Shown: positions 6,901-36,958 of the stretch, one piece after another
How the letters are laid out: the number at the start of each line of letters is the position of its first letter
Position numbering within the stretch: the first letter of the stretch is position 1
Source of the DNA: Spirogloea muscicola
Lineage: Eukaryota > Streptophyta > Zygnematophyceae > Spirogloeales > Spirogloeaceae
NCBI GenBank assembly: GCA_009602725.1
Contig: WELB01000118.1
Span: 245,803-283,102, forward strand
Length of the DNA: 37,300 nucleotides
Direction of reading: 5' to 3'
The notes under the pieces: generated by a model
Databases searched by the model: none
What the model was told of the DNA's origin: nothing
Seen by the model: only the letters and a program-made list of their open reading frames with translations
Position numbers and translations under genes: made by a program

Positions 6901-7085
6901 ATGCGCGGCCGAATTGACTGGTAGCTGGGAGAAGCCAGCCCAAAAGGAATGGACAAGGTCAAGAGGAGCCGAATGGCGCAGAAAGCAGAAAGCAGTAAGC
7001 AGGGGACTAAGTGCTAAGACGACAAGGACATACCCACGAGTGAGCACGGGAAGAAGACGTGGCACTCCCAATGAAAAAAATGGGG
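6901..7085 (-). repeat. Retrotransposon 3'-UTR-type module with GGCTGG/CCAGCC hairpin
   Basis: The plus strand reads GCGCGGCCGAATTGACTGG, then a GGCTGGGAGAAGCCAGCC hairpin, then GGAATGGACAAGGTC, then a segment ending GGGACTAAGTGCTAAGAC. The same block recurs at 21558-21660 and 36160-36270. On the minus strand its order (TTAGCACTTAG, CCATTCC, hairpin) resembles the region after the stop codon of family-A tails (TTAGCGCTT, CATTC, hairpin), so I read it as a 3'-UTR fragment in minus orientation. At 7028-7048 an inverted LTRGY-type ORF end is visible (minus strand). A GTGGCACTCCCAAT segment then abuts the next retrotransposon fragment. Confidence 0.6.
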
Positions 7086-7092
7086 GCAAGGC

Positions 7093-7788
7093 GTGCGTCA
7101 ATGCCAGTGTGGCGAGCGAGGGGCCGAGCCTGGCGAGCTGGCTGCTCACGTCCTGCGCTGTTCCCATGGCGGCGAGAGGACGGCGGCCCACGACCGCCTC
7201 CGGGACGCGATGCACGGCATCTTGGTGGAGGCTGGCTTCGCGGTGGCAGCGGAGCACTCCGGCGTCATGCCGCTCCAGGCCAGGGCCGACGGTCTCCACG
7301 CTCGTCGCGTCGACCTGGTGGCCACCCCACAGGCCGGCGGGCCACGTCTGCTTCTGGATGTGGTGACTACCGACGCATTTGACCGCTCCCACCCAGCCCA
7401 GTCTGCCACCAAGGCTGGGTATGCGGTCGCCTGCGCCGCTCGGGCAAAAGAGATCAAGTACGCCGACCATCCACCGGAAGACGAGTTCTTCCCGTTGGCA
7501 ATTGACATCCATGGGGCACTGGGCGCTCGGTGGCTTGAGCTACTTAACCAGCTCGCCCGCCACGCAATCGCCCGTCGCTTCCATGGTGAACCGGTAGACT
7601 TTCCTGCAGCCGGGTCGCTGGCGCAAGTGTATCGCATGCGCTTGGCCGTCTCGCTGCAGAGGTCCATGGCCCGTGCGCTGCACCTTCGTGCCAGACGAGC
7701 CCTCGCTGCTGCCTCTGGCTCTGTCCAGGGGACCCACTTCCAGGACCCTAGCCTCTCTGATTTGCGGCTGCTTAGCAGGGGTTACTGA
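7093..7788 (+). pseudogene. 5'-truncated non-LTR retrotransposon ORF, family A: zinc motif, RLE endonuclease, tail
   Basis: Open for 231 codons and ending TGA, but lacking the upstream reverse transcriptase, so it is a truncated insertion. Order: a C-x-C...H...C motif (CQCGERG, then AAHVLRCSH) with a following R..H; a PD-(D/E)xK-like core (RRVDLVATPQ, then LLLDVVTTDA, later a Lys-rich KEIKYAD); then FFPLAIDIHGALGARWLELL; then the tail RMRLAVSLQRSMARALHLRA ending SDLRLLSRGY. In R2-type and Dualen/RandI LINEs a CCHC knuckle and a restriction-like endonuclease lie C-terminal to the reverse transcriptase. Assignment to that broad group is by motif order only. The body has no stop, so it is either young or under recent constraint. 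No clear target-site duplication was seen. Confidence 0.75.
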
Positions 7789-7975
7789 GTGATTTGTAGC
7801 TGCTTTCTTTCTTTGTGTGCTTTGGTTTCTTAGCGCTTCCTCTGGCTTCCTCTGGCCCCCTTCTCGTTCTTTGTTTATTCTTTTTTGGGCTGGCTTGTCC
7901 AGCCCCTATCCTCAATGGGCGAGCCCTTCCTTTTCAACGGGGGCAAGGGCTGCGAAAAGCCAGCCCAAAAAAGAG
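7789..7975 (+). repeat. Family-A 3' UTR with hairpin module, plus a second hairpin in the opposite orientation
   Basis: After the TGA comes a pyrimidine-rich segment similar to those at 22066-22140 and 36833-36900, then GGGCTGGCTTGTCCAGCCCC and CAATGGGCGAGC. This is the plus-orientation hairpin module. From about 7940 the sequence switches to the reverse orientation (GGGCTGCGAAAAGCCAGCCC). The 3' boundary of the element is probably near the switch. Confidence 0.6.
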
Positions 7976-8611
7976 AAGAAGTGGCACTCCCAATGGGGGC
8001 AAGGGCTGCGAAAAGCCAGCCCAAAAAGAATTCACAAAGGTTCAGAGGGGCCTAAGAGCGGTGAGCAGCTACAAAGAAGAAGAAAGAGCTCGCCCATTGA
8101 GGAAGAGGGCCTGAGGATGCTATGGTAAAACAGGGGGAGGATGGATCACTCAGTAATGCCGACGAGTTCGTCCCCTTGGCGGTGGACGTGCACGGGGCTC
8201 TTGGGTCCCAGTGGCTTGACCTATTGGCTAGGCTTGCGCGGCGGACTGTGTCCCGCAGACGCGGCGAGCCAGCCGACTTCAACGCCGCGGGCTCGTGGGC
8301 TCAGGTATATCGGATGCGCCTCTCTGTATCCCTGCAGCGGTCCATGGCCCACGCTCTGCATCTGCGAGCTGGTCGTGCTCTTGCTGCGGGCTCTGGCTTT
8401 CGTCAGGGTGATAGCTTCCCGGCCGCTAGTCTGTCGGATCTAAGGCTCCTCACTCGTACTTATTGAGTGATCCATCCTCCCCCTGTTTTACCATTGCATC
8501 CTCAGGCCCCTTTGTAGCTGCTCACCGCTCTTAGGCCCCTCTGAACCTTTGTGAATTCTTTTTGGGCTGGCTTTTCGCAGCCCTTGCCCCCATTGGGAGT
8601 GCCACTTCTTT
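7976..8611. mobile_element. Fold-back element: ~150-bp inverted repeats around a LINE tail fragment
   Basis: The left arm, about 7976-8152, is the reverse complement of the right arm, about 8463-8611. I see about one mismatch, plus one roughly 30-bp insertion in the left arm near 8077-8107 that contains a GCTCGCCCATTGAGG module piece. The arms run from GTGGCACTCCCAATGGGGGC through the hairpin module to AAACAGGGGGAGGATGGATC. Between them is a family-A retrotransposon tail of about 310 bp. Such long, nearly perfect arms imply a recent event: an inverted-repeat transposition unit, a twin insertion or a palindromic duplication. Confidence 0.7.
8122..8466 (+). pseudogene. Family-A retrotransposon tail inside the fold-back element
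   Basis: An open frame of 114 codons. Residues 1-12 come from the left inverted repeat. From ADEFVPLAVDVHGALGSQWL onward it matches the 7093-7788 copy, including RMRLSVSLQRSMAHALHLRA and the end SDLRLLTRTY before TGA. The zinc motif and endonuclease core are missing, so it cannot encode an active protein. It differs from the upstream copy at many positions, so it is a separate lineage and not a local tandem duplicate. Confidence 0.7.
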
Positions 8612-8740
8612 CAGTAATTACGAGTGAGGGAAGACGTCGCCCAAGAGGGGCGGCAACGGAGGTGTTCCAATTTGCGGCACGGCGAGCCGGCTGACTTCGA
8701 CGCCGCTTGCTCGGCAGCGCCAGTGTGTATCACCCGGCCC
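8612..8740. repeat. Short retrotransposon tail scraps
   Basis: At 8612-8632 the minus strand shows an LTRNY-stop-like end. At about 8660-8735 the plus strand has a GEPADFDAA segment like the family-A tail (GEPVDF and GEPADF in the two previous copies), after which similarity stops. These scraps mark the boundary before the SET gene region. Confidence 0.45.
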
Positions 8741-9220
8741 GTGCTCTAGCTGGGGCTCCTTGGGGTTTCTCAAGTTCCAACGCAATGAGGTGGGACGCAA
8801 TCGCGACGCGGGCCGGGTCTGGCGTCGAGGAAGTTGACCGGCCGGCCAGATCCCGGGATGATTTTCGAAACCAGGCCAGCCCCGCGCACCCCTTCCGTGG
8901 AGGCGCCGGCAACTGTGCCCGCTTCCGTCGCCGCCGACGGCTGCCGCAGCAGTCCCTCCTCGCCGCCGCTGCAGCCGCCGCCGCCGCCTGCGACACGCCC
9001 GGCGACGCAGCGACGTTCGAGAAGGCGGAGGACCTCGATCGGCCACCGTCGACTCTTTGCAGCGCCGGCGCTCCAGGCGCCTGCTGGCCATTGCTGGCCT
9101 AATCTTCGTGCTCGCATTCGGGAGCGACGATGGGCCCCCGGCACTCCTGATCACAAGCCAGTCTCTTGGCGGCCTATAATGGCCCGAGACGGCCTGCTCT
9201 GCTGCGATAGTCCTCCGGCA

Positions 9221-12200
9221 ATGACAGGCCATGTGCGAGGCTTCACCATCTTTGTCTTGGCGAACCTGCTCTGCACAGCCGTGCCGGCATTGGCGAGCTC
9301 CGGGGGCGGTGGTTATGAGGTCTACAGAGAGGTACTGTTCTGATTCTTGTACGCCAGCAGGTAGCCAGGTTTTTGTCAGTTCTACTTCTCCTCCATCAGC
9401 TCGTCCGGACGAGCTCGGACAAGCAGACCTCAGTGAAGTCGTGGTGCAGCTCATGAAGAGGTTATGCATTGAGTATCGATTGTCCGCTTTCTGCAGTTTT
9501 CGAAATGGCTGGACGAGGTTGGAATAGAGGGTGCTACTCCGCCCAACCTGCGGATGCTTATCTTCAGCCCTTCTGAAGGCCTGGAGGGCTTGAGCCACCT
9601 CATGAGCTTAGAAGAGACCGCACGATCGGATCTAAGCGGCACCGAGCGCGGCATAGTGGCCGCACAGGATGCCAATATTGGAGACACGATCCTCGTTGTG
9701 CCTGTAAGATGTATACCTTACTGTGGCTTGCCAACGGGGTGGCCATGATGCTGGTGGTCCCTTCTTAGGTGCCAACTCGACAGATACCAGACCAGCACCC
9801 GAATCCAGAATTCAGTAGTGTGGAGATCGCACCTGACAGGAATGAATAACCTAGCAGGTCTGTCTTTGATCACTTGCAGTTTAATTCCACGATTGTCCTT
9901 CCAGAGGAGTACAAACCTTGTGGCGAAACGGTGGCCTGGGACGTGTCAATCTCAGTCGCCCTCTTGGAAGAATTGTATGGCCTTTTAAATTTTGACCACA
10001 GCAAATGCAGAAGGGCCAGGCCATTGTGATTTATGAGTCTGCCTAGCACCTCAGAAAGTTTTTCACAATATACATTACTCACGGAATGACGTTGGCAGGA
10101 TGTGCATGCTGTTTGGAGAACCTGCAGGCTGCTGGAGCGACAGTCAGATATTCTGTTATGCTGGCTTATCATGATTGGGGGGTGTCATGATTGGGGCCTG
10201 CATTATCAGGCTTCTGCAAGTCAACAATTTTGGCTTTGGCTCACAGCCTTGATTGTTCTTTACTAGGCATAAAGGCAACAAGTCAAGTTACGCGCCTTTT
10301 CTACGGACTTTCCCAAGGAACGTGGATGTTCCTTGGATAACCCTCAAGCCAGAGGTTAGCCGCATCTAACTTTTCCTCATGAGAGTCTATAATATAGATT
10401 TTTGTCAGTTACCCCATGGACATAGGTTAGATATTGCATGTACGTCTCGGGTCCATCACAACTCAAAGCTGGATACTGATATAAGCTTATATGTCAAATA
10501 TCAGGAGCATATCTGACAGCAATGAAGACTGACTAGTTGTCTTCAAGCTCGTCACACAACACTGCAGGAGTATAAGGAGGCGCAGTTTGGACCAGCTATT
10601 AGCTTCATGGAAAGCTGGTGGACTTATACACACAACATTCACAAGCTGTGTAACCTAAGTGGAGAAACAGGAGGTTCATATGAACAATTTGGTAAGGGAA
10701 GCCTTTCGTTAGCCTTCCACCCGATATTAAACTACTGCTTACTCTCATTTATCGTTCTATTTCTGCAAGATCTCGTTCATCTATCCTGGTCTCCGACTGC
10801 TTCATGTCGACCTCTGGGTGCATCAGAGTCAGACAATTAGCTGCTTCAAAGCCAACTGCCATTGTACACTGATGCATCGTTGTTGAGCACTTGAGCAGCC
10901 TGGGCCATGGCCATGGCCTCAACCCGCGGATTCAGACTACCAGTGCCTGATGAGAATGGAACTATTAAGGTCACGCCCATGTTCATGCCTTTTGGTGACC
11001 TCTTCAACCACCATCCAGCAGGCCTTTCACATGTGAGCACATGCTGTGGAACCTGCCTTGCAGGCTCCTCGGGCGATGACGGTCATATGCAGTCCTGGTG
11101 ACAGATGTACTTCTTGCAGTGCTGCTCACTACCTTATGAAAGACTTTCCTGCAACCTTTTGTGCTCCAGATTGAATGGGAAGAGAAAATCACACATGATA
11201 AGCTTGAGCTGGTGGTCACTCGGCCAATCAGGAAAGGAGAGCAGATATATGATTTTTATGGTGAAAGGTCCACTACAAGTTACTACGTTGAGATGGGTAA
11301 GCTGTGTAGGGAGGCTCACGAGAAGAGAGATTCTGTAGTGGGGCATCTAGCTCTTTGCAGGAGACTGCTTGACCTTTATTGATAGGCTTCTGGAAGGTTG
11401 TTATAAGAAAACTCATGTGTCCTGCATAAGTTATGCAGCCAAGCTGCTGAGACATTGGAGTAACTTCGAGAAGTGTACAGTTTATCTGCTCAACACAGGC
11501 GGCATGCCTATTCTGCCTTTGCAATGAGCACTACCATATGCCAGCTCAGGATTGCAATGGGCTTGCTTCCTGCATGCAGGTTTCGTTCCTGCAGATAATC
11601 CTTACAACGACGTCCCAATCTTCACAAATTACGGGGTCTGTAACCAAGCCCTGGAGCTTGTCATATTCGCATAATTGTCTTGGCCTTATGATAGCTCATC
11701 CCGATGCCCTTAAGCACCAATATATGTAGTTGATTTCGTGTTTCTTGTTCCTCCTTTCAGGAGCTTGTCAACTGGGTTGCAGAGAACTTTCTGCAAGTCC
11801 CCGAGCTTGAGCAATCTGAACACAGCAGACTAGTGAGGCTGGCCAGTGATGTAGCGAAAGCATATGCAGAGGAGGATGACAGTGGCTTGCCAGTTGCTGA
11901 TTACCTTGAGGTGGAGGACAGATACATGGATGCAGGGGGAGACGACTATGCCTCCTTTGAAGCCGTTGTTGAGACAATTGAATCAGTGATCAGAGATAGT
12001 GATGCTGAGAAGTTGGCAGAGGATGGCAGTGAAGGAGCAGATTCACAAGAAAGTCCGGACGAGGATGATGATGCCTTGATAGTGAATGCACACAAGGGTG
12101 CAATCGACTCGCGCCTGAAACCCGCCATCATGGCACTGGCTTGGGCTCTCCACCTAAATGAGAGTTCGTCAGAGACGTATCCCTGGGGAGATGCACGCCT

Positions 12201-12826
12201 CTCGCAACTTGCTGCTTACAGGACTATTGCATTACGGCTTCACCAGATTATGAGCGCCTTTCCAACTACGGTGCAAGATGACTTGGATCTGCTGGACAGG
12301 TCAGCTATCTAATGTCAATACTATGGGCCAAACTAGAAAAAGATGGCATACTGGTATAAGGTTAATCTTGCCAATATGTTGTGAGTTCTTCTTCATTAAG
12401 ATGGGCTATGATATCAGCAGCCCATCTTCTTCTTTTGCAGCCCTGCTCCTATGTGATTAGGCGCTATAGCTGCTATGGTTGAAATGTTGAACGTGACTCC
12501 ACCCTGTCAAACCTGGTGAAAACTTCTAGGAATATTTTTATCAGAAGGTAGCACGTCGGGCAAGGCAAAGTCACGGTCTTGTGATGATCCGAGTAAAGCT
12601 CCCTGTCTGCAGGGCAAAGGCGTGCAAGGAGCAGGATGAGAAGTCATGTACGTGGTTGCAGGACGGGAAGGATGCGCTGTCTGAGCCTATAAGACTTGCC
12701 ATCACCTACCGGATGACCATGAAGATAGACCTTGCTGCGGTCGTGGCTTTGCTGCACGACAAGCTAGCTATCATTGAGGAAGGTGCCATCAAGTCTGAAA
12801 GTCCGCTTAGGCATGAAGAGCTGTGA
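9221..12826 (+). CDS. SET-domain protein, Rubisco-LSMT/SETD3-like
   Basis: Probable protein lysine (or histidine) methyltransferase. Exons: 9221-9331, 9497-9703, tentative 9769-9819, 9880-9974, 10267-10354, 10568-10691, 10899-11032, 11170-11296, 11580 to about 11650, 11761-12299, 12613-12826 (TGA). The N-terminus has a hydrophobic stretch (FTIFVLANLLCTAVPALA) suggesting a signal or targeting peptide. The SET N-part is FSKWLDEVGIEG followed by RGIVAAQDANIGDTILVVP. The inserted region has SYAPFLRTFPRNVDVPW and FAWAMAMASTRGF. The SET core has MFMPFGDLFNHHPA, RKGEQIYDFYGE and YGV-CNQ. A C-terminal region rich in acidic residues and helices resembles the Rubisco-LSMT substrate-binding domain. The third exon and the donor of the ninth are uncertain. 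An in-frame ATG at 8834 could give a longer Arg/Pro-rich leader. Substrate unknown. Confidence 0.82.
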
Positions 12827-13570
12827 GGTGATCGTCACTTTTCCTTCTAAAGAGCGTAAGCTCAGCTAGTTTTGGGATGGCTGTTGCAGTGGGTACCCTG
12901 AGCATCTTTTTCGCCAGTCCATAACTTATTCATGCACTGCTGAATCGAATTTGCAGCCTGGTGAAGCTAGGGCGCTACACATGCTCATGCTTCTGTTTGC
13001 CATGGCGAGTGACAGTGACACCAGTGTGGTACAGCAATAATGTGCAGCCATTGCAGCTACTATTGCTGTGAAGCATAGAATGCCGTTCCAGCAATTCTGT
13101 GACAAACCGCGATCAGAAGTGTTCAGGATAAGCTCCTTTGTAAATCATTAACTGTAGAATGAAGCGTGTTATTGGGACATGCTTTGACAGATAGACTACA
13201 CAAACTCACAAAACTGACTGAGACACCTCATTGAGAAGGACCGAGATGGTCTACTCTCACAGCAATATCAGGTATAGCATGCAGTCTCCAGCCTGTTGAA
13301 GATGCAAGTGTCGGTAGCTTGTCTCATAGATAGATGCGTACCAGCCCGACTGACGTTTCAGTACTGTGCATAATAATCTGCCATCTGATCTTGAAGCGAG
13401 TCAATGCGTAGTGCATCAATGGTGTCCTTCGAAAATTTCTTAATAAGCTCAACATGCGGTAGGGTGGGGAAGGGAGGGGGGGCGCATGGGGGATGACCTC
13501 TTCCCGTTGCAAACCTCACGTTTGCGTGTGGGGGGAAAATGCGTGTATATTAAGAGATGGGGAGGCCATG
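12827..13570. other. Intergenic, no gene recognised
   Basis: This holds the SET gene 3' UTR and unassigned sequence. I see no coding exon with recognisable content, no tRNA and no long repeat until the family-B 3' UTR near 13500. Confidence 0.5.
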
Positions 13571-14345
13571 TGTGCCCAAGTACAAAGGCAAGCACATTGG
13601 ACAAATGTACGTCACCTGCTGCTAAGCTGACCCGCTCAGTAACCACGAGTCAGCACATAGAGGTCGCTAGCTGACGCTCGAATACCGGACGGCAATTGAC
13701 TAGCTCTTGTGCCAGCAGCTAAGGCTCGACCAGCTTTCTGATGCAGAGCATACGCCTGAGCTCGTTGCAGACAGGTTGACACTCGACGTCGCAGAAATGA
13801 CAGATAGGCTGCCGGCATACCCATCTGGGCTGGGAGCATATCCTCGCGTCGTGCATATCCCAGACTCGCTATGTTCTCGAGTAGGGTATGGAAGCGAGGA
13901 CCCAAGCAGCCGAAAGTGTCGATTGCGGCCGGGAGGAGGTGGTCACTGCGGGGGTAGTCTGAGTAGTGTCGGAGCTTTTTCTGCTCAGCACCTCCCACTG
14001 CGTGGCCAGCAATGTGTGTGGAAGCGGAACTCTTGTATGCCTCAGTCACCACCACATCAACCAAAGCTCGTGGGCCTCTGCCAGGTTGTACACCCACAAT
14101 GTCCAGGGTGCGACGGTGATGGCCTCCCTGGGAATCCGTGGTGATGGGCATTACATTGCTCACTTCAACGATGGCGCAGTAGCCGGCGTCGCGCATCAAG
14201 CCCGCCAGGGCGTCCCGTAGGAGATTGTGGACGCCCACCACCTCAGGGCCTGTGGGACACCGCAGCATGTAGGTGGCTAGGTCTCCGCCCTCCGTACGGA
14301 AGCCACACTCACACTGAGTTACTCCAATCAGGCAGGTCGGGGGCA
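13500..14345 (-). pseudogene. 5'-truncated non-LTR retrotransposon, family B: zinc motif, RLE endonuclease, tail, 3' UTR
   Basis: The minus-strand ORF ends at 13636-13638. Order: TQCECGFRT and ATYMLRCP (C-x-C...C motif, with His replaced or shifted), then HNLLRDALAGLM; the endonuclease-like core RRTLDIVGVQPG, RALVDVVVTEA and K..HYSDYPRSDH; then DTFGCLGPRFHTLLENIASL; then FLRRRVSTCLQRAQAYALHQ and the end SDLYVLTRGY. The 3' UTR (13635 down to about 13500) matches the one after the 15531 copy (GCAGCAGGTGACGTACATTTG). Compared with family A the protein is clearly diverged but keeps the same order. The reverse transcriptase is absent. The 5' boundary abuts a family-C tail in the opposite orientation. 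Confidence 0.72.
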
Positions 14346-14378
14346 GGCCCAGGGCTATCGTTCCGGCCGAGGGGCAGC

Positions 14379-14576
14379 TTGGGCCACTCCAGCATTCCGC
14401 AGGCCTTAGTTGCATATTATAGAATGCGGCTCTCGCTTAGTTTGCAGCGCTCGCAAGCATTGGCTCTTCATCAACGTGCAGGGCGCGCTCTAAGTCAGGC
14501 CTCCGGCTTTCGTGGCGGCGCTCCAGCTCCCCAAGTTAGCTTGTCAGATTTGTTTGTGCTCACCCGTGGGTACTAA
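14379..14576 (+). pseudogene. Family-C retrotransposon tail
   Basis: About 60 codons: YYRMRLSLSLQRSQALALHQ, RAGRALSQASGF and the end SDLFVLTRGY, followed by TAA. This tail differs from families A and B and is closest to the copy at 37040-37236. It lies head to head with the family-B copy, so two different 5'-truncated tails point away from one junction near 14350-14390. Confidence 0.65.
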
Positions 14577-15530
14577 TGTCATCTTAGGTACCTTAGATTA
14601 GGTCTCCGTATTATGTAGCATTGTTTAGTCTGTACTCGACTCTGCCTGAACAATGTATTGGCTTGAATTGGCCTCCCTTTCAATTCATGCGCCCCGCGCG
14701 CCTTCTCTCCGGCCGAGGGGGGTGGTGGGTGGTGGGGCGGGCTGAGGCGGACAGGGTTAATCGCGTGGATAGGCCAAGACATCAGCACCCAGACAGTGCC
14801 TCACCGAAGGCGCAGTTTTATACTGCAGGCCTCCAGTTGCTTGCTCAGCTCAAGCCACTTTGCGAGATGGTGTGCGGAAAGGGTTTGCTGCAGGGGCTGA
14901 CATGGGTGCAGAGCTCCTCGCCACATTCTCCAAAGACACACCAACCAACAGAGGTTCTAAATTTAGGAGCAGATTTTGTAAAGCCTTCTCCAAAGCCATG
15001 GGTTATCGAGTCGCCATGTGCCCCCTGAATCATGACGAGCCACGCCACCACCCAGCCCCACTGCAATACATTTGTCCTTCGCTTCAGATGTTCTGACCTT
15101 CTTTGGATGGAGTAGTGTCCATTTTCACGCCACTGCTGACTCGCAGGCACTAGCAGCTTGGATTTTACCGACTACTTGAGTGTTGTGTCTGAAGGATGGC
15201 AGCTACTTCAGCAGAAAGGACCGGCCTGTACATCCAATGGGCAAGCTGTGTGACAAGTGTCAAGTCACACTCTTGGCCCTCTCCTCTTAGGCTTCTGCTC
15301 AAAGATGCTTGCTTCTCTACTGTGCAACAGTATGCACGGCTGCAGTATTTGTGCATAGAATAGCATACCAAAGTCCTGATGTCCACTATGTGCCCCTGGA
15401 AGGACGACAACGCTGGCGCAGTGAAGCCACCTCCTTAGAAAGCTGCTTGAGGCCCACAGTGACCCTCCTGTGCGCTGCCTTGGCAGCCACGTATAGATAA
15501 GTGGATATACGATAAGCATACCCCACGAAG
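14577..15530. other. Intergenic between retrotransposon fragments
   Basis: About 950 bp without a recognisable gene. Several short open frames exist on both strands but none shows a family motif. A G-rich stretch lies at about 14715-14745. No hairpin module was found here. Confidence 0.4.
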
Positions 15531-16010: not shown

Positions 16011-16167
16011 CCGCGTGCAATGCTCTGCAATTGCTCAAATGTTGACATCATTCAGTCATAAAGAACTGACAGACAACGAGCCCATACATTATACTTCATG
16101 GCACGAAGGCGCAATTGGCTCTCCCAGCGATTGAGGCCCATGTACTGCAGGCAGGCGGCCTATCATC

Positions 16168-16325
<158 letters not shown>

Positions 16326-16334
16326 GTCCGGGTG

Positions 16335-16830
16335 GACCCGAAGCGTGCCCACAAAGTAGTCCGCCTCCGATTGTCCCTACAGCACTACTCCGACTACCCC
16401 CGGTGCGATCAGCTCCTGCCAGCTGCAGTTGACACTTCTGGCTGTCTGGGTCCGCGTTTCCACACCCTCCTCCACAACATTGCCAATCTAGGCTACACAC
16501 GACGAGCAGATGTGTTCCCGGCTGAGATGTGCTTGCAAGCTGCATATCTGTCTTTCTTGCGACGACGAGTTTCGGCCTGTCTGCAGCTTGCCCAGGCTAA
16601 TGCCTTGCACCTGAAAGCTGGGCGAGCTCTAGTTGGTGGCAGAAGGGCTTCTTATCCGACATCTAGTACTCAGGCATCGATTAGCGACCTTTATGTTTTG
16701 ACCCGCGGTTACTGAGCGGGTCATTCTGCTGTAGGTTATATAAGTCTTAGATGTGCTTCCCTTCGTACTTGGCCATTTGGCCTTCGTTTGTTTCAAATAC
16801 ACGAATTTATTCCCCTATTTAGGCTTATTG
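16335..16830 (+). pseudogene. Family-B-like retrotransposon tail and 3' UTR next to the TG/CG tract
   Basis: Coding from about 16360 to TGA at 16713-16715: LQHYSDYPRCDQLLPAAVDT, CLGPRFHTLLHNIANLGY, then FLRRRVSACLQLAQANALHL and the end SDLYVLTRGY. It diverges from the two other family-B copies (for example in RADVFPAEM) and has a different 3' UTR (GGGTCATTCTGCTGTAGG, then TTTGTTTCAAATACACG). Pieces of that UTR recur at about 22290-22385 and 36000-36060 in minus orientation. Confidence 0.68.
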
Positions 16831-21544: not shown

Positions 21545-21990
21545 AAAAAGAAAAGCGCGGCCGAATTGACTGGTGGCTGGGAGAAGCCAGCCCAAGAGGA
21601 ATGGACAAGGTCAAGAGGAGCCGAATGGCGCAGAAAGCAGGGGACTAAGTGCTAAGACGACAAGCCTGGCCGTGCCTTCGCTGGGCTACATCGAAGAAGA
21701 AGTGGCACTCCCAATGGGGGCAAGGGCTGCGAAAAAAAGAGCTCACCCATTGAGGATAGGGGCTGGAACAGCCAGTCCAAAAAGAAGAAGGCTCGCCCAT
21801 AGAGAAAGAGGGGCTGGCAAAGCCAGCTCAAAAAGAATGGACAATGTCCAAAGCCGAATAATGAGAAGCCGAGGAAGGACTCCTCTACTCCCCCTACTGC
21901 CCCTATTCTCAATGGGCGAGCACTTTCTTCTACTCTACCAATCACGACAACATACTAGGGAAGCTCAGTACCCGCGAGTGAGCAACAGCT
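21545..21990 (-). repeat. Cluster of 3'-UTR and hairpin modules in minus orientation
   Basis: A GCGCGGCCGAATTGACTGG block (21558-21660) is followed by GTGGCACTCCCAATGGGGGC (21700), then two consecutive hairpin modules: GGGGCTGGAACAGCCAGTCC (21761) and GGGGCTGGCAAAGCCAGCTC (21812), each preceded by a GCTCGCCCAT or GCTCACCCAT box. A plus-orientation CAATGGGCGAGCACTTTCTT end lies at 21909. At 21968-21985 an inverted LTRGY-type ORF end is visible (minus strand). Confidence 0.6.
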
Positions 21991-22194
21991 GCCTCTGGCT
22001 CTGGCCAGGGGACCCACTTCCAGGAGCCCAGCATCTCTGATCTGCGGCTGCTTAGCAGGGGTTACTGAGTGTCTCGTAGCTGCTTTGTTTCTGTTACTTA
22101 GCGCTTCCCCTGGCCCCCTTCTCGTACTCTGTGCATTCTTTTTCGGGCTGGTTGTTCCAGCCCCTATTCTCAATGGGCGAGCACTTTCTTCTCC
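21988..22194 (+). mobile_element. Family-A tail end and 3' UTR, near-identical to 36752-36958
   Basis: It starts in the tail (AASGSGQGTHFQEPSISDLR), reaches the stop TGA after LLSRGY, and continues through the UTR to the hairpin module and GCACTTTCTTCTCC. Against 36752-36958 I count three differences and no length change over 207 bp. The 5' truncation falls at the same base in both, so the two are copies of the same truncated unit or share a source. Confidence 0.75.
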
Positions 22195-22764: not shown

Positions 22765-22995
22765 GCCCTTAATGCTCACTCGCGGGTACTGAGCGTCCTT
22801 AGTGTGTTGTCGTGTTTGATAAAGTAGTCCTTTTCGGCACCTCTTTCGTTGGCTTTGGACATTGTCCATTGTTTTTGGGCTGGCTTTGCCAGCCCTTCTT
22901 CTATATGGGCGAGCACTTTCGTTTTTAATAGCCATTGTCCATTCTTTTTGGGCTGGCTTTGCTGGCCCCCTTTTTCTATGGGCGAGCACTTTCTT
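22765..22995 (+). repeat. LTRGY-stop end followed by two hairpin modules in tandem
   Basis: CTCACTCGCGGGTACTGAG at about 22772 is an ORF end (LTRGY, stop). Two plus-orientation modules follow: GGGCTGGCTTTGCCAGCCC (perfect palindromic arms, about 22877) and GGGCTGGCTTTGCTGGCCCC (about 22949), each after a CCATT.TTTTT box and each ending GGGCGAGCACTTTC. They are about 72 bp apart. Confidence 0.65.
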
Positions 22996-23114
22996 CTTGC
23001 CATTGCTCACTGACGAGAGCTTCTTCTGTCTAATCTTCTGGGCTGGCCTTCACAGACATCGCTTCCTTCTGGACTTCCTGCAGCTGCTTGCACAGCGGGC
23101 CATCGTCGTCAGGG

Positions 23115-23330: not shown

Positions 23331-23394
23331 ATTCGCTGTACCCACTTTGCAGAGCTGTGCGGTCTAGCCACTTTCGGCCCTTTGGGACCTTGTC

Positions 23395-23760
23395 ATATAT
23401 TCTGGGCTGGCTTTCCCAGCCCCATTGAAGAAAAGAAGATTCGTTTGTTTTAAATACACGAAAATCCTTCTGGGCGCAGGCTTTAGCATTTGAAGAAAGA
23501 GAAGTGCTCGCCCATAGAGGATATGGGCTGGAAAGGCCAGCCCAATAAGAATGAACAAAGTTCGAAGGGGGCCAGGGGAAGCGCTTAAAAGCTAGCATAT
23601 ATGGAACCAAGCAGCTACAAAACGCTCAGTAACCCCTGCTAAGCAGCCGCAGGTCAGAGAGCCCCTATCTTTCTGGAAAGAACTTCCTCTATTTGGGCTG
23701 GCCTCTCCCAGCCACCAGTCAATTTGGCCGCGCTTTCCTCTTTTCTGGGCTGCCTCTGCA
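23395..23760. repeat. Hairpin modules in both orientations and an inverted family-A end
   Basis: Plus module GGGCTGGCTTTCCCAGCCCC at about 23402; minus module GGGCTGGAAAGGCCAGCCC at about 23525 with GCTCGCCCATAGAGG before it and AATGAACAAAG after it; inverted SDLRLLSRGY-stop at about 23626-23668 (minus); plus module GGGCTGGCCTCTCCCAGCC at about 23694, running into CAGTCAATTTGGCCGCGC, the inverse of the block at 6901 and 21558. Confidence 0.6.
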
Positions 23761-28186: not shown

Positions 28187-28791
28187 CACAGCGCCGCCGC
28201 CGCCGCCGCCGAGCGCATGGCGCGGGGCGCGCGGCGCCTGCGCCGCAGTCGGCGCAGGGGGTCCCGGAGGTCAGGGAGAAGAATACGTCTCCCAATATGA
28301 ATGGAATATGATTTATGCACTTAGGGAAACAGCTCATGCCACGCATGGCAATGGCTGCCAATACATGTTCATCATTCCCGGCCGCTGGCGTGGCTCTCGT
28401 TCGGCGGACGTCCCGTTTCCTAACGGCGGCGTCGTCACGTAACCGCGTTGCCGGCCTCGGCTGAACGTCGGGCCAGCCCGACCCTGCGGCCCGACATTCA
28501 TAGTTTCACAGCTATGATGCTTAATTACCCTCCAGCTATCACAGCCGCTATCTTACATTTCAGCAGCCGCTTTTTTTCTTTCTGCCTGGCCCGACGATCG
28601 TCCGCCCGCCTCCGCCATCCTCGCGATCGTCCACCTTGGCCGGCTGCCCGCCACCGCCATGTGCAGTCGGCGCGGCGGCGGCGGCGGCGGCGGCGGCGAA
28701 AGCGGCAGTGGCGGCAGTGGCGGCCCCCAGCGGGCGGCCGCGGTCGTGCGTCGACGGCGGCGCGTCTAGGACTGCGGGGCCCGACGGCGGC
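28187..28791. promoter_or_regulatory. Divergent promoter region between O-fucosyltransferase-like and KEA genes
   Basis: About 600 bp between two genes transcribed away from each other. It contains CGG/GCC trinucleotide runs near 28195-28215 and 28673-28700 and AT-richer sequence in between (28290-28350 and 28500-28580). It probably drives both genes. No specific motif recognised. Confidence 0.45.
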
Positions 28792-31700
28792 ATGGCGCGG
28801 GCGGCGGCTCGCCTTCCACGGCGGCTGGCCGTCGCCGTGGTCGTGCTCCTCGTCGCCGTCGGTGCCTCAGCGGCAGACGGCGAGGACGGGCGGGAGGTGG
28901 CGCCGGAGTACGACATTGAGGAGAGGGACGCGCCGAGCGCCGGTAGCCTCGCTGACATCATTGACCGGGTGCTGGAGAAGGAGTTCCCCGATCATGACCC
29001 TAGCGAAGGTGAGCGCTGTCCTATGCCTCAAGCCCTGGTCCATTGCAACGAAAAGCAGCCGGCTTCTGAGTAGAAGGTTGATCACATTTTACTTGGCCCA
29101 TGCTACTTATATCATGCAGCTTGGCACCTATGAAGTGCACCTGGCCGTACAAGCTTTCCTTCATCGCCGCAGTGCTTTGCAGCTCAGCTTATTGTCTTGT
29201 GTATATTTCTTCCCAAGCAGTCCTCACAAACAGTTGTCGTAATTGTAGACCGAGATTGGTAACCGTCTACTTAAAGCCCTAGCGTAATATTAGTGGCAAG
29301 GCTAGGGACTTGTCTCTGACATCCAGCTTGCCCTTCAAGTCTTTGATCAAGGTACTGTACTTCGCATAGGATAAATAAGGCGTAAATGATCAGAGACAAC
29401 ATGATCATTACGAATTCTTTGTTGAACCATAATGTTTGAAGGTTACCTGCCGTCTCGCTTCTTGTTGCGATCTGCAGCCAATGAAGCAGAGGTTGGGAGC
29501 AACTTCAATACAACAATAGCTGAATCGCAGGTCCCGATCTCTTCCCTGCATCTCCTAAGAGCTTTCTAGGCACTTAACGTGAAGCCAGTTTGTTGCTGCA
29601 CAGGATTCACATTCACTGCTGCATTACGCTGCCAGTTTTACAAGAGTGAGGAATTTTGCTTTGTGGCTCCACCCTCTTTTGCGATGCGTTTGTTAATTGA
29701 TATCAGCTTCAAGGTGCATCAGCATGCTGACATTTATAGGAATGATACATTGAAATTTTTCGAAAAGTGACATGCTTCTCCTTGTAAAGGCTACTCTGGA
29801 AACAGTGGCACGGGTAACGCACGAAAAGCCAAAGAAGAACGAGAGTGCAGCCACAGAGTACGTGACATAAGATGTTCCCTCAATTCCCTTTGCTTGGCTG
29901 CACAGCTTCTCAGCATGGGTGCTCACTTATGAGCAGCTGGGGCCTTTCAATAAGAACCTCCATTGTCTTTTGGGGCTGCTATACAATGATTACCTTGAGT
30001 GACACACAAAGCTGCTGATTTAATCATCTGATACAGCGTGGCGATGAAGTTGCTCAAGCTGACATGCAGACGTACATGTTGCTGCAGAACATCCAAGCGT
30101 TTCCAATTCAAGGACCTATTCGCGGGCAACAAAGATGAGGAGTCAGAGGGTGCAGCATCTCTCCTCATTGATTCAAAGGCAAGAGCAGTTAACAAAACCA
30201 TCATATGTGCAATGGGAGCAATAAGATCATCACACTGCTTATCCCAGAATTGCTCATGGCATGCTTGTCAGTCAAAGTTTGTCAGAGTGGCTGCAATCAA
30301 ATTCTCATTCTGGACCATGTATTATCGTACAGGACAACGTCTTTGTACTGTCAAGCCCAAGGTTGGGAACGATGGTGCTTCAACAAGACCTGCAGTAAGC
30401 TCAACTCGCAAAATCAGCCCATTGTTGGTGACTATCTGACTCTGCAGCGCCAGGCCTTGGCTGCTTGCCTGTAGATGCAATAATTCCTGCAAACATCATC
30501 GCCCGATGATGTGCTGGAGATTTACGATGAGGCATGATGAGGTTAGGGCACTGCTTCTTAAGCCCGTGAAGCCCAGAACGTCACTACCTTCCTCCTACCT
30601 TGCAGGCTCATCTCGGACTTGGTCGTTGTCATTGTCCTTGCGGCTGCCGGAGGTGTCCTATTTGCCTTTGTGGGGCAGCCGGTAGGGTCATTTGCTCTTG
30701 TGCTTGTGTAACTCCTGTCATTGCACCACTGCTTCATTAGATCCTTTTCCCTGCTTGTAATGTTCAATTCAAGTACATCTCTGCCATGGGGCTTCCATCA
30801 TGATTGTGATTGCTTCAGCTGCATTTGGCAAGCTGTTGTGGCCAATGAGTAGCTCATAAGTACAGTGTGGCCCTCTATGCACCATGTGTTATTTGGCAGG
30901 TCATTACGGGGTACTTGATTGCTGGTGCTGCTATTGGTCCTGGTGGGTTTGGTCTGATCAGACAAGTTGTGCAGGTATAAGATACTATCAAGTAGGTTGC
31001 AGATGTAGTTGCAATTGTGTGATGCCAATGAGTGTGCAGCTCTGCACCTCACACACGCTCAACTTACTCCTTGTGGCCTACAGGTCGAGTCACTTGCTCA
31101 ATTTGGGGTCCTTTTCCTCCTCTTCTCTCTTGGCATGGAGTTCTCTTTAGCAAAGGTATTGTACCATGATCTGAGTCAGCAGATGTATGTCATGTGGCGC
31201 AGTTACTACCATGATGCTCTTTTTGGTGTCTTAGGTGACTGTTAGAATTTCTGAGAGCTTGACAACAGTATATTGCTCTGTACCGCTGCTTGTCCTGTCT
31301 GATCATGAGCTTTTGTGGGCAGTTGAAGGTGGTTCGTCCAGTAGCAATTGGTGGAGGTCTCCTGCAAACTGCCCTATTCATGGGCCTGTGCGGTGTCCTG
31401 GCTGTTGTGAGTGGCCCACATCCAGCGAGCGCATGCCAGCCTTGTAATGTTGGACCTCCATCGCATATCTGCACTAGATTTGGCCAAGGGTGATGCTGAC
31501 AACCAGGCATTGTAATCTAAGCTCCCCTGACTAACAGCCCACCATTTTGTAGGCTTGCGGAGGCAGAATCACAGAAGGCGTGATTGTTGGAGCTCTTTTA
31601 TCCATGTCGTCAACTGCTCTGGTAGAAGCCTCATCCTGGTGGTTGTGCAAGGCCTCCAAGCGGCACTGCTGCAGTTGCAATCTGCATACCTGTTCTTGAC

Positions 31701-34625
31701 CAACTTTGGTACTCCATATGATCCTTTCATGGTCAAGTTGCTGATCATCACACTGACAATGAATACTTCTGTCTGCTTGTCAGCATATTTGTGACAATCG
31801 CCCCCTGCAAAACTCACTGCGCAGGTACTGAAGTGCCTAGCTGAAAATAACACCATGCAGACATTACATGGGCAGGTGACAGTAGGGACTCTGCTCTTGC
31901 AGGTAAGCAGTCCCAGCTCCTGGCAATAGCAATGTGTTGAAGACTGGTCAAACCAAATATGTGCCTCTGTTGCACTGTTACCATGGTGTGTATTCGAGGT
32001 TACTGGGATGTCTATCTGAATGATGACAGACTGACTGCTATCTGGATTAGTTGAGTCTTTGTTTACTTGCAACTGGAGAGATCTTGCACGGAGTATGGAT
32101 GAGCTCGCAGACTTGTCAAGGTTATGCACATGTATGCATATGAGGGGAGTACGACTACATCTACTACTTGCTTACTGTGCTCGTGGAGCCTGATTAATTG
32201 CAGAACTGTACAGTTGGGCTACTTTTTGCCATGCTGCCTGCGTTAGGACAACAAGGCAGTTACCTTCAGAGGTTACAAAGTGTAGCGAAGGAGTGAGCAG
32301 CTCATTGGCCTGATTCTTGCTCGTGCGCTGTGCTTGTGCTTTTCGCTGCTCGTTATACCGTGCAGACAGGCTTCCAATTGCCAGTTAAAGATTGGCACAT
32401 AGATGCATGTTAGCTCGTGCGGATTATATCTAGTAAGGAGGCTGAGTGGCGTGTTGCTGCTGCAGATTGACATTGTTGGTCGTTTTCGTGGTGGTGGCTA
32501 TGCTGCTTGCTTACTACTTCATGCCCTATTGCTTGAAGTTGCTTCACAGCCTTAGTGCGCAGGTCCATAAAGCTCGCCAAAGCTTTCAAATGTTACACCT
32601 ATCATAGGACACCTTATTCTGACTTACCTCACTTGACAACACTGTGAATCTGCACTTACTATGAAACCGGATTAGGACCCACAAACTTCAAGATTAGTGT
32701 GAAGCTTGCAGCGTAGGCATACTGACAAATTGCAAGATAACATTGTGAGCTCAAGCAGTGCCTGCTTTATGTCCTTGAAGTTCAAAGAGTCAACAGCCAG
32801 TGAATGCATTACGTGATCCTCTGTCTTCTGTGGTTCTGCAGACTGCGGAGCTCTACCAGCTTTGTGTCATTGCATTTTGTCTTAGTATGGCTTATGTAAG
32901 AACATTGCTTTACTTCATCAGCTTCATTTGGCAGGCTTCATCTTGGAGACTACCCATGTCATGCTGCAATGCATAGAACTAAGTTTCTGTGGTGGTACTT
33001 GTATTGACAAGATTCGTACATATCTTACTTTGTACTTGTACAGATTGGCAGCAAGCTTGGGGTCACGATAGAACTAGGGGCATTTGTGGCAGGCGTCATG
33101 ATTTCTACATCTGATCTCGCTGAGCATACCCTTGAGCAGGTAGTCAATTGATCATCTACTGACTTGCAAGATGCAAATCTCTGAGGCTGGCCACCATGTT
33201 GTTGTTTATTTGAACTACTCTGCTGAAGATTGCAGTATGATAAGTGTGCTCAATGTTCACAGGTAGACCCCATCAGAAACATTTTTGGAGCTCTATTCAT
33301 GGCATGCATCGGCATGATCATGTCACCAGCCTTCATGTGGACCCACATCAATGTCATGCTGGCATCTCTGCTTGTTGCATTTGTGTCCAAGACTGCCCTC
33401 ATCACCTGTGTAGTGAGAGCTTTTGGTTACAGCACTCGGAGTTCCTTGACGGTGAGGCTCGCTGATGGATAGTTCTTCCCTACCTGACCAATCACTTAAT
33501 TTAGCAATGTGTGCCTTTGGCAGCAGAAGTGGCAGCTTTTCCAATCTTGTGTGTCATTCTTGCTTTGCAGGTTGGCATGTCCTTGGCACAAATTGGTGAA
33601 TTTGCTTTTGTTTTACTCAGTCGTGCTTCGAATCTGCACCTCGTTCAGGTATGCTTTTAATGACATGCCAACCCTGTTGATGGCCTTGATGTTGTACATA
33701 CTTGTGTGCAAGTCAAGGGAAATGAAGACGAACGTTTTGCAACTCAGATGTTGCAGCAGCAGTGAAAGAGATGAGCAACTGCGTCAAGAATGACATGGCT
33801 GCATGAGAAGCATCACTCAGCTCATCTGCTCTTATTCTGCAGAGAAAAGTATATCTGCTGCTTCTTGGGACGACAGCGCTTAGCTTGGTAAGTATTCCTT
33901 GTCTCTGCATTGTTCAATTTGCAAATATTTGTGCCTACTGTTCTGGTCCTTGATAGGTCCAAGCATGTTGAGTGCCCAAATTCCTTGTGTGTTTCTGTTT
34001 GTCCCCGCTGCATTGCCCTTATGTTTCAATATTTGCAATCTTGAGCAATGACTTGCATGACAGTGGAGGCTTAAAGCAAGCAATTCTGCTTTTGTAAGCA
34101 GGTTGCAACGCCATTGGTGTTCTGGATGACCCCGCACATTGTACGTTTTGGAGTGCTGATGAGATGGCTGCAACAAGAATCAGATGGTGTAGAGGTGTTC
34201 AGCTATTTCAGTGATGGCTCTTGCTGCTTTTGTATTTGCTTTTGCGACAGCCAAGTACTAATGATGAAGGGTAGATAATACCATGTTGTTTCCCTTAATG
34301 CTGAGCTCACCTGTCGAGTCTTTCAGCAATGCTAATACTATACTGATTGGTTGTGGCAGAGTTTATACAGTTGCAGCAAATCAGTAGCTTGTGCAGAATG
34401 CGTTGCTTCTTACTGAAAGGTGCATTGCTAGATCAGAGAAGGGCATATCACTTAATGGTTGGCTTTGTTGGCATGCAGATTGCAATGAACGGCGACCATA
34501 GTAACGGGCGTTTCATTTCCCTGTCAGTGCAACCTTCCAAGGTACTTCATGACAGCGGATCAATGACAAAGACACCTCAAGCCCAGCAAGTTGGTGCATT
34601 CACGAAAGGGCAACAACAGGACTAA
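28792..34625 (+). CDS. K+/H+ antiporter of the KEA4/5/6 (CPA2) type
   Basis: Twenty exons: 28792-29008, 29478-29530, 29790-29857, 30088-30178, 30333-30394, 30606-30681, 30900-30974, 31084-31155, 31323-31406, 31553-31621, 31825-31902, 32204-32271, 32466-32562, 32842-32895, 33044-33139, 33263-33451, 33571-33648, 33843-33887, 34102-34194, 34479-34625; all phases close, about 603 aa. N-terminal signal peptide (LAVAVVVLLVAVGASA), then the plant-KEA-specific DIIDRVLEKEFPDHDPSE, ATLETVARV and RFQFKDLF. The transmembrane part has LISDLVVVIVLAAAGGVLFA, GYLIAGAAIGPGG, QFGVLFLLFSLGMEFS, IVGALLSMSSTALV, ELGAFVAGVMIST and AQIGEFAFVLLSRASNLHLV. It exchanges K+ for H+ in endomembranes, as Arabidopsis KEA4-6 do, and lacks a KTN domain like them. 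The conserved Q-D is Q315-N316 here. The intron 30179-30332 has a GC donor. Confidence 0.92.
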
Positions 34626-35440
34626 GTCCTCTTCTTAATTACTCGCGCTCTTAGTCATAACTTACGATTCTTTCATTGATTGGGTAGCCTACATTAATTA
34701 TCAGAGATTATAAATTTGTACGTATAACGATTACTCATGTACATTACAAAGTAGCCCTGTCAATGAAGATTGCTGGCAACATCGGCATGTGTTTTGGCAA
34801 ATTCTGAGATAGGCAACTTCTTAAGTAAGTCAGATTTTCGGTGCTCTTGTTAAAAAACTTGGGCCAGAAAGGGTGATGCACTGATTTATCTGTCACATTC
34901 ATCACTTCACTTCATCTTGCATGTCGAAAGCCCGAGTCCGTGGCAACAACCAGAGAAAAGTTGCTCCTTGTGTTGTGCGGTTGGGGAGCAAAGTGATGTA
35001 GAGATTTGTATCAGACCATGATTGGCTGTGTTGCAATTCTCTGAATGGGAGCAAATATGGGTGCTGTTGACAGCTTCTAGCCACTTGAATATTGCGCTGT
35101 GTTTCATAGGACCCTGTTGGTCTGTTGGGTCGGCCTTCAAGAGCCCTCGCCTACTTTAAAGGGCTTTTGACTATCATGGCTCATAAAGGTAAAGTCATCC
35201 CTTGCTCCAGCTCACTACTGTCGCCTGTGGCTTGTGCTCGCTCTACCTTCAAGCGCAGCATATCTCAGTCAATATTTCATACGTACACACGCATGATCTT
35301 GACTGGATCGTCCGATTGTCTGCTGCCACTGCTACTGTCCTCCAGCTAGCTGCCTCTGTGAACGAGCTGGAAGCCAGTCAGCGCAGGAAAGTAGATCAAG
35401 AGGTGTCGCTGGCGTAACGAAGGGTAGAAAATCCAGAAGG
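34626..35440. other. Intergenic, with one weak candidate C-terminal exon
   Basis: No gene is secure here. At about 35212-35417 (+) a frame ends VRLSAATATVLQLAASVNE...QRRKVDQEVSLA before TAA, following a plausible CTCCAG acceptor. It looks like a helical protein end, but no upstream exon could be linked, so it is not called as a gene. Confidence 0.3.
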
Positions 35441-35454
35441 GCAACGGCGTGAAT

Positions 35455-35535
35455 AAAGAAATTGCTCGCCCACAAGGGGTAGGGGCTGGGAAAGGCCAGC
35501 CCAAAAAGAATGGACAAGGGCCAAAGAGCCAAAAG
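35455..35535 (-). repeat. Solitary hairpin module
   Basis: GCTCGCCCACAAGGGGTAGG, then GGGCTGGGAAAGGCCAGCCC, then AAAAAGAATGGACAAGG: a complete module in minus orientation with no retrotransposon coding sequence beside it. It is the clearest stand-alone copy in the window. Confidence 0.7.
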
Positions 35536-35990
35536 CAGTGAATAAGCAGTGACGGCCAGTCAAAGTGCATCAAGTAGCTATCACAAGGTGCGAAAGTAGT
35601 GACTGGCAAAAATCCAAGATCCTCGGAGTAGCCGAGTAGAGATTGAGTGTGAGGAAGCGCACTCAGATGCATGATAGTGTTTGCTCTCATGCACAGCCCT
35701 TACTCGCTTGCAGAAGCGACAGATTGTGAGTTGAAGATGGCCTCAAATGCCCTCTAGTACAGGACCTTGAAGTCGGTCACTGCATAATTATTTGGCTCTT
35801 ACACTTGACAGTGGCTGTATAGGGCCAGGTCAGGGAATGCCCAGAGTGCTAATTCCTTGTCCATACACTTCAATCTACACAGGCTTCAAGAGCTTCAAGA
35901 GGAGCCCGTTGGGTCAAGGACTCCCCGTGAGTCGTGGCTGTTGAGCTCACTGACAGCCTCCTTGTCAGGACCACTGGCCTTCATAGCCGC
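35536..35990. other. Unassigned sequence between repeats
   Basis: About 450 bp with no recognisable gene, module or RNA. Confidence 0.4.
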
Positions 35991-35999
35991 TCCTTGAGT

Positions 36000-36110
36000 A
36001 CAAAGGCAAGCAAGCACATCTAAGACCTACATGACCTACAGCAGAATGACCCGCTCAGTAACCGCGGGTCAAAACATAAAGGTCGCTAATCGATACCTGA
36101 ATACAGAGGG
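36000..36110 (-). pseudogene. Family-B-like retrotransposon end and UTR
   Basis: On the minus strand, ISDLYVLTRGY and stop lie at about 36085-36050, then GCGGGTCATTCTGCTGTAGG and TGTGCTTGCTTGCCTTTGTA, matching the copy that ends at 16715. The insertion is only about 110 bp, an extreme 5' truncation. Confidence 0.65.
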
Positions 36111-36124
36111 GCCTGGAGAAGGCA

Positions 36125-36355
36125 TAGAAAGCGCGGCCAGATTGACTGGTGGCGGGAGAAAAGCGCGGCCGAATTGACTGGTGGCTGGGAGAAGCCAGCC
36201 CAAAAGGAATGGACAAGAAGGGCAAGAGGAGCCGAATGGCGCAGAAAGCAGGGGACTAAGTGCTAAGACCGGAGAGGCCAACCCACAGGAATGGACAAGG
36301 TCCGAAGGAGCCGGACGGTGCAGTAAACAAGGTACCGAGTGCTAATAAGGGCCAA
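36125..36355 (-). repeat. Two tandem 3'-UTR-type modules
   Basis: A first unit (GCGCGGCCGAATTGACTGG, then hairpin GGCTGGGAGAAGCCAGCCC, then GAATGGACAAG, then GGGACTAAGTGCTAAGAC) is followed at once by a diverged second unit (GGAGAGGCCAACCCACAGG, AATGGACAAGGTCCGAAGG, then GGTACCGAGTGCTAATAAG). A short duplicate of the GCGCGGCC.GATTGACTGGTGG start precedes the first. Confidence 0.6.
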
Positions 36356-36718
36356 TTTACACCGGGACGGACGGACGGACGGAGGGGTACGTGTCGCGCG
36401 GTGAGTGGAACGCCCGGCTTTACACAGCCTGCGCGCCCGGACGCGGACGCGCGCCACGGAGGCGCCACATAGGCGCTGACTAGGACGCTTTTTGGGGCGC
36501 GTTAAGGCGGAAACGCGCGCGTTTGCCACGAGGGCGGACGGACTCGGCACCACCTCCCGAGGAGGGGCCAGTTCCGTCCACCCCCCCCCCCTCCCCCGTC
36601 CACGCAGTTGGACCCCAACAAACCGCCCGGGCTGCCCAAAAAGGGTCAGTCGGCACCCACCCCTCCCCGGCCCCCATCATCAGCAGGCCCGGGGGAGCGT
36701 GACCAGCCTCCCCTTCGG
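36356..36718. other. GC-rich unassigned sequence with CGGA repeats and a C10 run
   Basis: It contains four to five CGGA tetranucleotide units near 36364-36384 and a homopolymer C run near 36579-36590. No gene recognised; the open frames on both strands are low-complexity. Confidence 0.4.
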
Positions 36719-36958
36719 GCGCTGCACCTTCGTGCCGGCAGAGCCCTCGCTGCTGCCTCTGGCTCTGGCCAGGGGACCCACTTCCAGGAGCCCAGCATCT
36801 CTGATCTGCGGCTGCTTAGCAGGGGTTACTGAGTGTCTCGTAGCAGCTTTGTTTCTGTTACTTAGCGCTTCCCCTGGCCCCCTTCTCGTACTCTGTTCAT
36901 TCTTTTTCGGGCTGGTTATTCCAGCCCCTATTCTCAATGGGCGAGCACTTTCTTCTCC
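36719..36958 (+). mobile_element. Family-A tail end, 3' UTR and hairpin module
   Basis: LHLRAGRALAAASGSGQGTH, then the end SDLRLLSRGY and TGA (36830-36832), then the UTR and the module GGGCTGGTTATTCCAGCCCC with CAATGGGCGAGCACTTTCTT. From 36752 it pairs base for base with 21988-22194. Confidence 0.75.

What the first reader, a model, noticed from the sequence alone, without database searches (positions are those of the whole stretch)
6901..36958. A dispersed ~55-bp hairpin module, about 20 copies, both orientations, linked to retrotransposon 3' UTRs
Seen: a GGGCTGG-N(4-6)-CCAGCCC hairpin with a fixed CATTCTTTTT side and a fixed TGGGCGAGCACTTTCTTCT side recurs near 6925, 7890, 7955, 8010, 8560, 21590, 21761, 21812, 22145, 22480, 22565, 22877, 22949, 23402, 23525, 23694, 35480, 36190, 36275 and 36905. 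Several copies follow the stop codon of a family-A tail; others stand alone or in tandem. Several substitutions are paired or lie in the loop, so the stem is kept. Inference: it is the 3'-UTR structure recognised by the element's reverse transcriptase, and it has been mobilised in trans as a SINE-like unit.
Basis: partly seen in the sequence, partly recalled or inferred. Interest (0 to 1): 0.75.

Follow-up and report, generated by a model that had tools for sequence, protein, structure and literature searches.

The report
Truncated retrotransposon tails in alga genome
The repeated hairpin is the 3' end of a group of R2-like jumping genes in a photosynthetic eukaryote, and the stand-alone copies are best read as insertions whose copying stopped early, often after 20 to 250 letters, not as a separate small mobile element.

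Summary
The hairpins are real but are not one module. They are the 3' ends of at least five tail families (A, B, P, Q, W here) of R2-like non-LTR retrotransposons in a 153-Mb photosynthetic eukaryote. A full-length element (4,116 bp; one ORF with two zinc-finger patterns, reverse transcriptase and an endonuclease-type C-terminus) carries the hairpin in its roughly 125-nt 3' UTR. In 97 copies picked by the last 18 nt, unrelated flank begins right after that end and the 5' ends are scattered: 49 well-determined copies run from 18 to 4,116 bp (median 83). Target-site duplications of 5 nt or more occur in 36 of 90 testable copies (8.1 expected), also in 7 of 15 copies too short to hold the hairpin. 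So the solitary copies are severely 5'-truncated target-primed insertions, not a SINE. The inner hairpin is nearly invariant in sequence; no compensatory double change was found. Recognition of this end by the element's own reverse transcriptase is the best inference but was not shown; trans-mobilisation between families is possible and untested.

The parts
7088..7934 (+). 5'-truncated A-type element: C-terminal coding end (stop at 7788) plus 3' UTR; terminal module about 7867-7934; the start is approximate
   Evidence: 845 nt from the 3' end, 98.2% identical to L030; ORF 7075-7788; module found by nhmmer
7075..7788 (+). C-terminal coding end of an A-type element: zinc knuckle and restriction-like-endonuclease-type region, ending LLSRGY-stop (the open frame starts a little upstream of the element)
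   Evidence: 41% identical over 233 aa to the ORF at 13636-14436
21988..22192 (+). A-type insertion, 205 nt, with complete 3' module
   Evidence: (L=205, 99%)
36716..36956 (+). A-type insertion, 241 nt; duplication CCTT to CCTTCGG (the last 3 letters may belong to the element)
   Evidence: (L=241)
21899..21931 (+). 33-nt A-type 3'-end insertion without hairpin, inside a B-type tail; uninterrupted comparator in L024; duplication GAGTAG (CTACTC on this strand), with 8 extra letters at the 5' junction
8078..8113 (-). about 35-nt A-type 3'-end insertion inside a P-type tail, at the recurrent site before TTTGTAGCTGCT
21733..21786 (-). A-type 3' end, truncated
21781..21984 (-). B-type tail (RGY-stop and 3' UTR), split by the insertion at 21899-21931
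22853..22998 (+). two B-type tails in tandem (22853-22926 and 22931-22998)
23495..23661 (-). A-type tail (divergent subfamily)
8160..8611 (+). P-type element end, 5'-truncated: open coding end 8161-8466 (101 aa, ends LLTRTY-stop), 3' UTR, hairpin at 8564-8583
7935..8156 (-). P-type tails, inverted (7976-8156 is an inverted copy of 8460-8610)
6897..7073 (-). Q-type tail
21549..21716 (-). Q-type tail
23684..23740 (+). Q-type tail
36127..36345 (-). Q-type tails, tandem and decayed
35450..35526 (-). W-type tail
13636..14436 (-). coding end of a sister family (S type); no GGGCTGG hairpin in its 3' UTR; the related copy ending at 16715 has a GGCC..GGCC hairpin there

Best explanation
The 'module' is the 3' terminus of a diversified group of R2-like, single-ORF non-LTR retrotransposons. 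Copies arise by target-primed reverse transcription that starts at the element's 3' end and usually stops after tens to a few hundred nucleotides, which leaves solitary 3' ends in either orientation, often in or near older tails of sister families. Shown here: a common 3' end, scattered 5' ends, target-site duplications, and full-length elements with the same 3' module. Inferred: the near-invariant hairpin, with an outer helix in A/B types, is the RNA handle that the encoded reverse transcriptase binds to start copying, as in R2 and stringent LINEs.
For: Flank is unrelated right after the end in the 97 copies selected by the last 18 nt. Five-prime ends: 49 well-determined copies, 18-4,116 bp, median 83, 45 of 49 at most 270 bp. 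Exact duplications of 5 nt or more: 36 of 90 against 8.1 by shuffled pairing; 7 of 15 against 1.4 for inserts under 48 nt and 18 of 34 against 3.0 for longer ones. Uninterrupted comparator for the 33-nt insert at 21899-21931. Full-length elements L029 and L031 carry the same module. ORF: RVT_1 8.4e-16, best solved relatives are R2 proteins at 7e-7 to 1e-6, two C2H2 patterns and KELKY, predicted order a-b-b-b-a-b (weak model). The word at 137 nt from the 3' end occurs 852 times, the word at the 5' end 6 times. RGY-stop sites: 42 of 49 outside the S type have the hairpin core within 200 nt, 37 of these 68-112 nt away.
Against: No two-sided compensatory change in hairpin or outer helix on exact copies. 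Fold energy clearly better than shuffles only for the A tail (z -3.59); B -1.64, Q -0.97, P +0.20. No duplication of 5 nt or more was found in 54 of 90 copies. The control for 'hairpin behind RGY-stop' is 41.6% because the loci were picked for the module. The zinc-knuckle spacing differs from the published one. The 97 copies are not a random sample (first listed places on contigs C1-C4, plus the window and three other loci).
Confidence: 0.87

Rival explanations
1. SINE-like or SIDE-like non-autonomous unit: a short transcript with its own 5' head and the shared hairpin, mobilised in trans.
For: Many copies are short and stand alone; R2-derived short elements exist in flies (PMC3414825, abstract and passages).
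Against: No common 5' start among 49 copies; no tRNA gene found in the window; inserts of 18-38 nt lack the hairpin yet have duplications; tails are linked to coding ends.
Confidence: 0.06
2. The hairpin is not a reverse-transcriptase handle but is conserved for another reason (RNA 3'-end formation, stability) or by common descent alone.
For: Near-invariant letters without covariation fit sequence recognition by any factor or simple descent; the sister S type has it no more often than background (5 of 15 against 41.6%).
Against: It stays while the rest of the 3' UTR differs between families A, B, P and Q, and it sits at a similar distance from the point where reverse transcription starts.
Confidence: 0.2
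3. DNA-level mobile unit: miniature inverted-repeat element or rolling-circle-element end.
For: Short hairpin, both orientations, thousands of copies.
Against: One fixed end only, duplications of variable length, scattered 5' ends, full-length relatives with reverse transcriptase.
Confidence: 0.02

Closest known systems
R2 and other RLE-encoding non-LTR retrotransposons (CRE, R2, R4, NeSL with Utopia, HERO; clade list from PMC4640811 passages)
   Same: single ORF with N-terminal zinc-finger patterns, reverse transcriptase, C-terminal knuckle and endonuclease-type region with the KX2KY motif; 5' truncation, reported for R2 (PMC7650587 passages)
   Different: no strict target seen (HERO also holds many non-specific families); zinc-knuckle spacing CX1CX12HX3C; clade not assigned because no reference sequences were at hand; degree of truncation was not compared with a measured set from another species
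Stringent LINEs with a 3' tail stem-loop (ZfL2-1, ZfL2-2; PMC4176376, abstract and outline only)
   Same: stem-loop near the 3' end; common 3' end of copies
   Different: endonuclease type differs (recalled); binding not tested here; here the stem letters hardly vary between families
R2 SIDEs of Drosophila (PMC3414825, abstract and passages)
   Same: short copies carrying an R2-type 3' end
   Different: SIDEs join a 5' ribozyme to the 3' end; the copies here have no common 5' end

Membership tests
RLE-encoding non-LTR retrotransposon (broad group) | reverse-transcriptase domain most like R2-type enzymes | tested here: met
   RVT_1 8.4e-16; the three PDB sequences with E below 1e-5 are all R2 proteins; no tree was made
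RLE-encoding non-LTR retrotransposon (broad group) | C-terminal endonuclease with catalytic K in KX2KY and a-b-b-b-a-b fold (PMC5678591 passages) | tested here: inconclusive
   KELKY at residue 1238 of 1350 in L029, KLRHY in the S-type ORF; model shows a-b-b-b-a-b but mean pLDDT is 51.8; no Pfam or PDB sequence match; fold search could not be run
RLE-encoding non-LTR retrotransposon (broad group) | zinc knuckle CX2-3CX7-8HX4C before the endonuclease (PMC5678591 passages) | tested here: not met
   C-C-H-C is present but spaced CX1CX12HX3C in L029; in the S-type ORF the H is Y. The element is therefore called R2-like and not filed under a named clade
RLE-encoding non-LTR retrotransposon (broad group) | N-terminal zinc finger(s) | tested here: met
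   two C2H2-type patterns at 117 and 316; Pfam scores for the second are below cut-off and the first is not listed
Target-primed reverse-transcription products | constant 3' end, variable 5' truncation, target-site duplication | tested here: met
SINE | common 5' head of small-RNA origin and fixed length | tested here: not met
   scattered 5' ends; no tRNA gene found in the window
Stringent LINE tail | stem-loop bound by the element's own protein | not testable with these tools
   no binding data; structure only predicted
Structured RNA supported by covariation | two-sided compensatory changes | tested here: not met
   0 of 14 named pairs and 0 of 9 predicted pairs; one suggestive exchange in the outer helix between A/B and P types when the helix slips by one base: 19 of 29 clustered modules compatible against 12.8 expected, p 0.0067

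The most novel reading that the evidence does not exclude
The near-invariant hairpin is a shared 3' RNA handle for a whole group of R2-like retrotransposon families, so that the enzyme of any one active family can copy the tails of all, and its early stopping litters the genome with thousands of 18-250-bp insertions, many too short for repeat annotation to see.
Probability: 0.2. Interest if true: 0.6.

Novelty: new member of a known kind. Interest (0 to 1): 0.38.

Why it matters
It turns an odd hairpin into a record of R2-like retrotransposition in a photosynthetic eukaryote. Very short inserts with duplications suggest that insertions of about 20 bp can be reverse-transcription products. The conserved tail offers a test of whether sister families share one recognition signal. 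The seven counted literature searches (two listed only 12 of 162 and 10 of 98 papers) listed no paper on such elements in green algae by title or abstract start; the library lacks most subscription journals.

Tried and rejected
SINE: rejected on scattered 5' ends. DNA transposon or rolling-circle end: rejected on one fixed end and the reverse-transcriptase relatives. Covariation of the inner stem: looked for, not found. Outer-helix test without removing antisense copies was negative (real mean 12.2, shuffled 13.7, 200 of 200 shuffles at least as high), probably because the two strands were mixed; with sense copies only, 49, 12, 1 and 1 of 300 shuffles reached the real value at four clustering levels. 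Some tail types do not fit the outer helix: among 29 clustered modules six show a T-T and three a T-C mismatch at the tested pair. A genome-wide survival curve by word counts failed at 241 nt (666 hits), probably because that coding word is shared by other A subfamilies. Rfam at gathering threshold: no match in the window. Pfam: no match for two element tails of the window, three weak ones below cut-off for the third. Profile search of the C-terminal domain against PDB: two augmin chains at E 0.2-0.3, taken as chance. Papers: listings only; abstract and outline of PMC4176376; passages of PMC3414825, PMC4640811, PMC7650587, PMC5678591.
Full report
What was checked. The hairpin pattern and the fixed 3' side are in the window above chance (18 against 4.1 and 8 against 0.01). 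The window lies in a 153-Mb assembly with 68 matches to the chlorophyll a/b-binding family; the best of these is closest to light-harvesting proteins of solved structures. The host is therefore a photosynthetic eukaryote, by inference of the green lineage; its name was not available.

Several families, one architecture. A profile search of 226 kb found 152 tail-like stretches at E up to 1, the weaker of which may be chance. They fall into types that share GGGCTGG..CAGCC but differ downstream: A and B (..ATGGGCGAGCACTTTCTTCT), P (..CCCCCATTGGGAGTGCCACTTCTT), Q (..CCACCAGTCAATCTGGCCGCGCTT), W, and rarer ones. Of 64 RGY-stop coding ends in the fetched loci, 42 of 49 outside the S type have the hairpin core within 200 nt, 37 of them 68-112 nt away; the S type has it in 5 of 15, near the 41.6% (1,504 of 3,619) of random windows of these enriched loci. 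An S-type 3' UTR has another hairpin.

The parent element. L031 holds a 4,116-bp copy and L029 a copy that aligns over the same 4,116 positions at 99.9% with slightly different last letters. One open frame of 1,338-1,350 codons, counted from stop to stop and so starting a little outside the element, has two C2H2-type patterns, a reverse transcriptase (8.4e-16) whose best solved relatives are R2 proteins, a C-C-H-C knuckle and KELKY. A weak model (mean pLDDT 51.8) shows the a-b-b-b-a-b order expected for these endonucleases (expectation from PMC5678591 passages). The knuckle spacing is unusual, and no clade is assigned. The 3' UTR is about 125 nt and ends in the module.

How copies arise. Ninety-seven copies were selected by the last 18 nt (4 in the window, 93 in fetched loci, nearly all from the first listed places on contigs C1-C4), out of about 1,900 in the genome. 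Right after that end the flanks are unrelated. Two lie at locus edges, 5 are bounded by N and 41 are under 95% identical to the reference copies (other subfamilies, whose lengths against these references are not reliable). In the other 49, lengths are 18 to 4,116 bp, median 83; 8 are under 30, 45 are at most 270, one is full length. Exact duplications of 5 nt or more, allowing up to 3 letters inside the element's start in data and control alike, are found in 36 of 90 testable copies against 8.1 by chance, and equally in very short inserts (7 of 15 against 1.4) and longer ones (18 of 34 against 3.0). In the window a 33-nt insert splits a B-type tail whose uninterrupted relative is in L024, with duplication GAGTAG. 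Genome-wide, words at 48, 137 and 4,116 nt from the 3' end occur 1,286, 852 and 6 times at up to one mismatch. This is best read as target-primed reverse transcription with severe 5' truncation.

The RNA structure. The B tail shows the same helix (z -1.64); Q, P and S tails do not fold clearly better than shuffles (-0.97, +0.20, -0.53; the Q stretch was a mixture of two copies at two letters). In 116 copies selected by the 3' part alone, 63 keep all seven inner pairs and 20 keep six, against 0.8% and 6.5% of random places, but the letters hardly vary and most listed variants break a pair. On exact copies of A, B, P and W there is no two-sided change. A family-level exchange (U-A in A/B, A-U in P, with the helix slipped by one base) is suggestive: 19 of 29 clustered modules compatible, 12.8 expected, p 0.0067, with nine clusters of other types against it. 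So structure is plausible, and covariation support is lacking.

Targets. There is no strict site; the first bases after the insertion are T-rich. Twenty-two of 49 copies lie within 60 nt of another tail motif, against 13% of random 120-nt windows of the window and the 20 larger loci. Two positions are hit repeatedly: before TTGTAGCTGCT, a word of P-type 3' UTRs (14 of about 1,900), and before TTTTCRCAGCC, the loop side of P-type hairpins (13).

Verdict. The element is a new member of a known kind; the unusual point is how short most of the sampled insertions are.

Noticed in passing
L019:4738, L053, L058, L016, window 8078-8113: A-type 3' ends inserted again and again directly before TTTGTAGCTGCT, a word in the 3' UTR of P-type elements; 14 exact cases genome-wide.
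   Followed up: partly
L056, L089, L072; 13 exact cases genome-wide: A-type insertions at the same position in the hairpin loop of P-type tails, before TTTTCRCAGCC.
   Followed up: partly
C338:9309-14508 and C20:1130796-1135995: The same pair of head-to-head element copies with identical spacing on two contigs, which suggests allelic duplicates in the assembly.
   Followed up: no
L020, L022, L023, L065, L081; also L030: Runs of N just upstream of five element copies (and 2,605 N in L030), either assembly gaps or withheld stretches; the five copies were left out of the length count.
   Followed up: no
window 16169-16325: Long TG/GC dinucleotide run just upstream of an S-type coding end, in one open frame with it (16062-16715).
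   Followed up: no
window 5638-6465 (-) and 2170-4784 (-): Exons of what looks like a heavy-metal transporting P-type ATPase (HMA domain 5.8e-10; the rest judged by eye).
   Followed up: no
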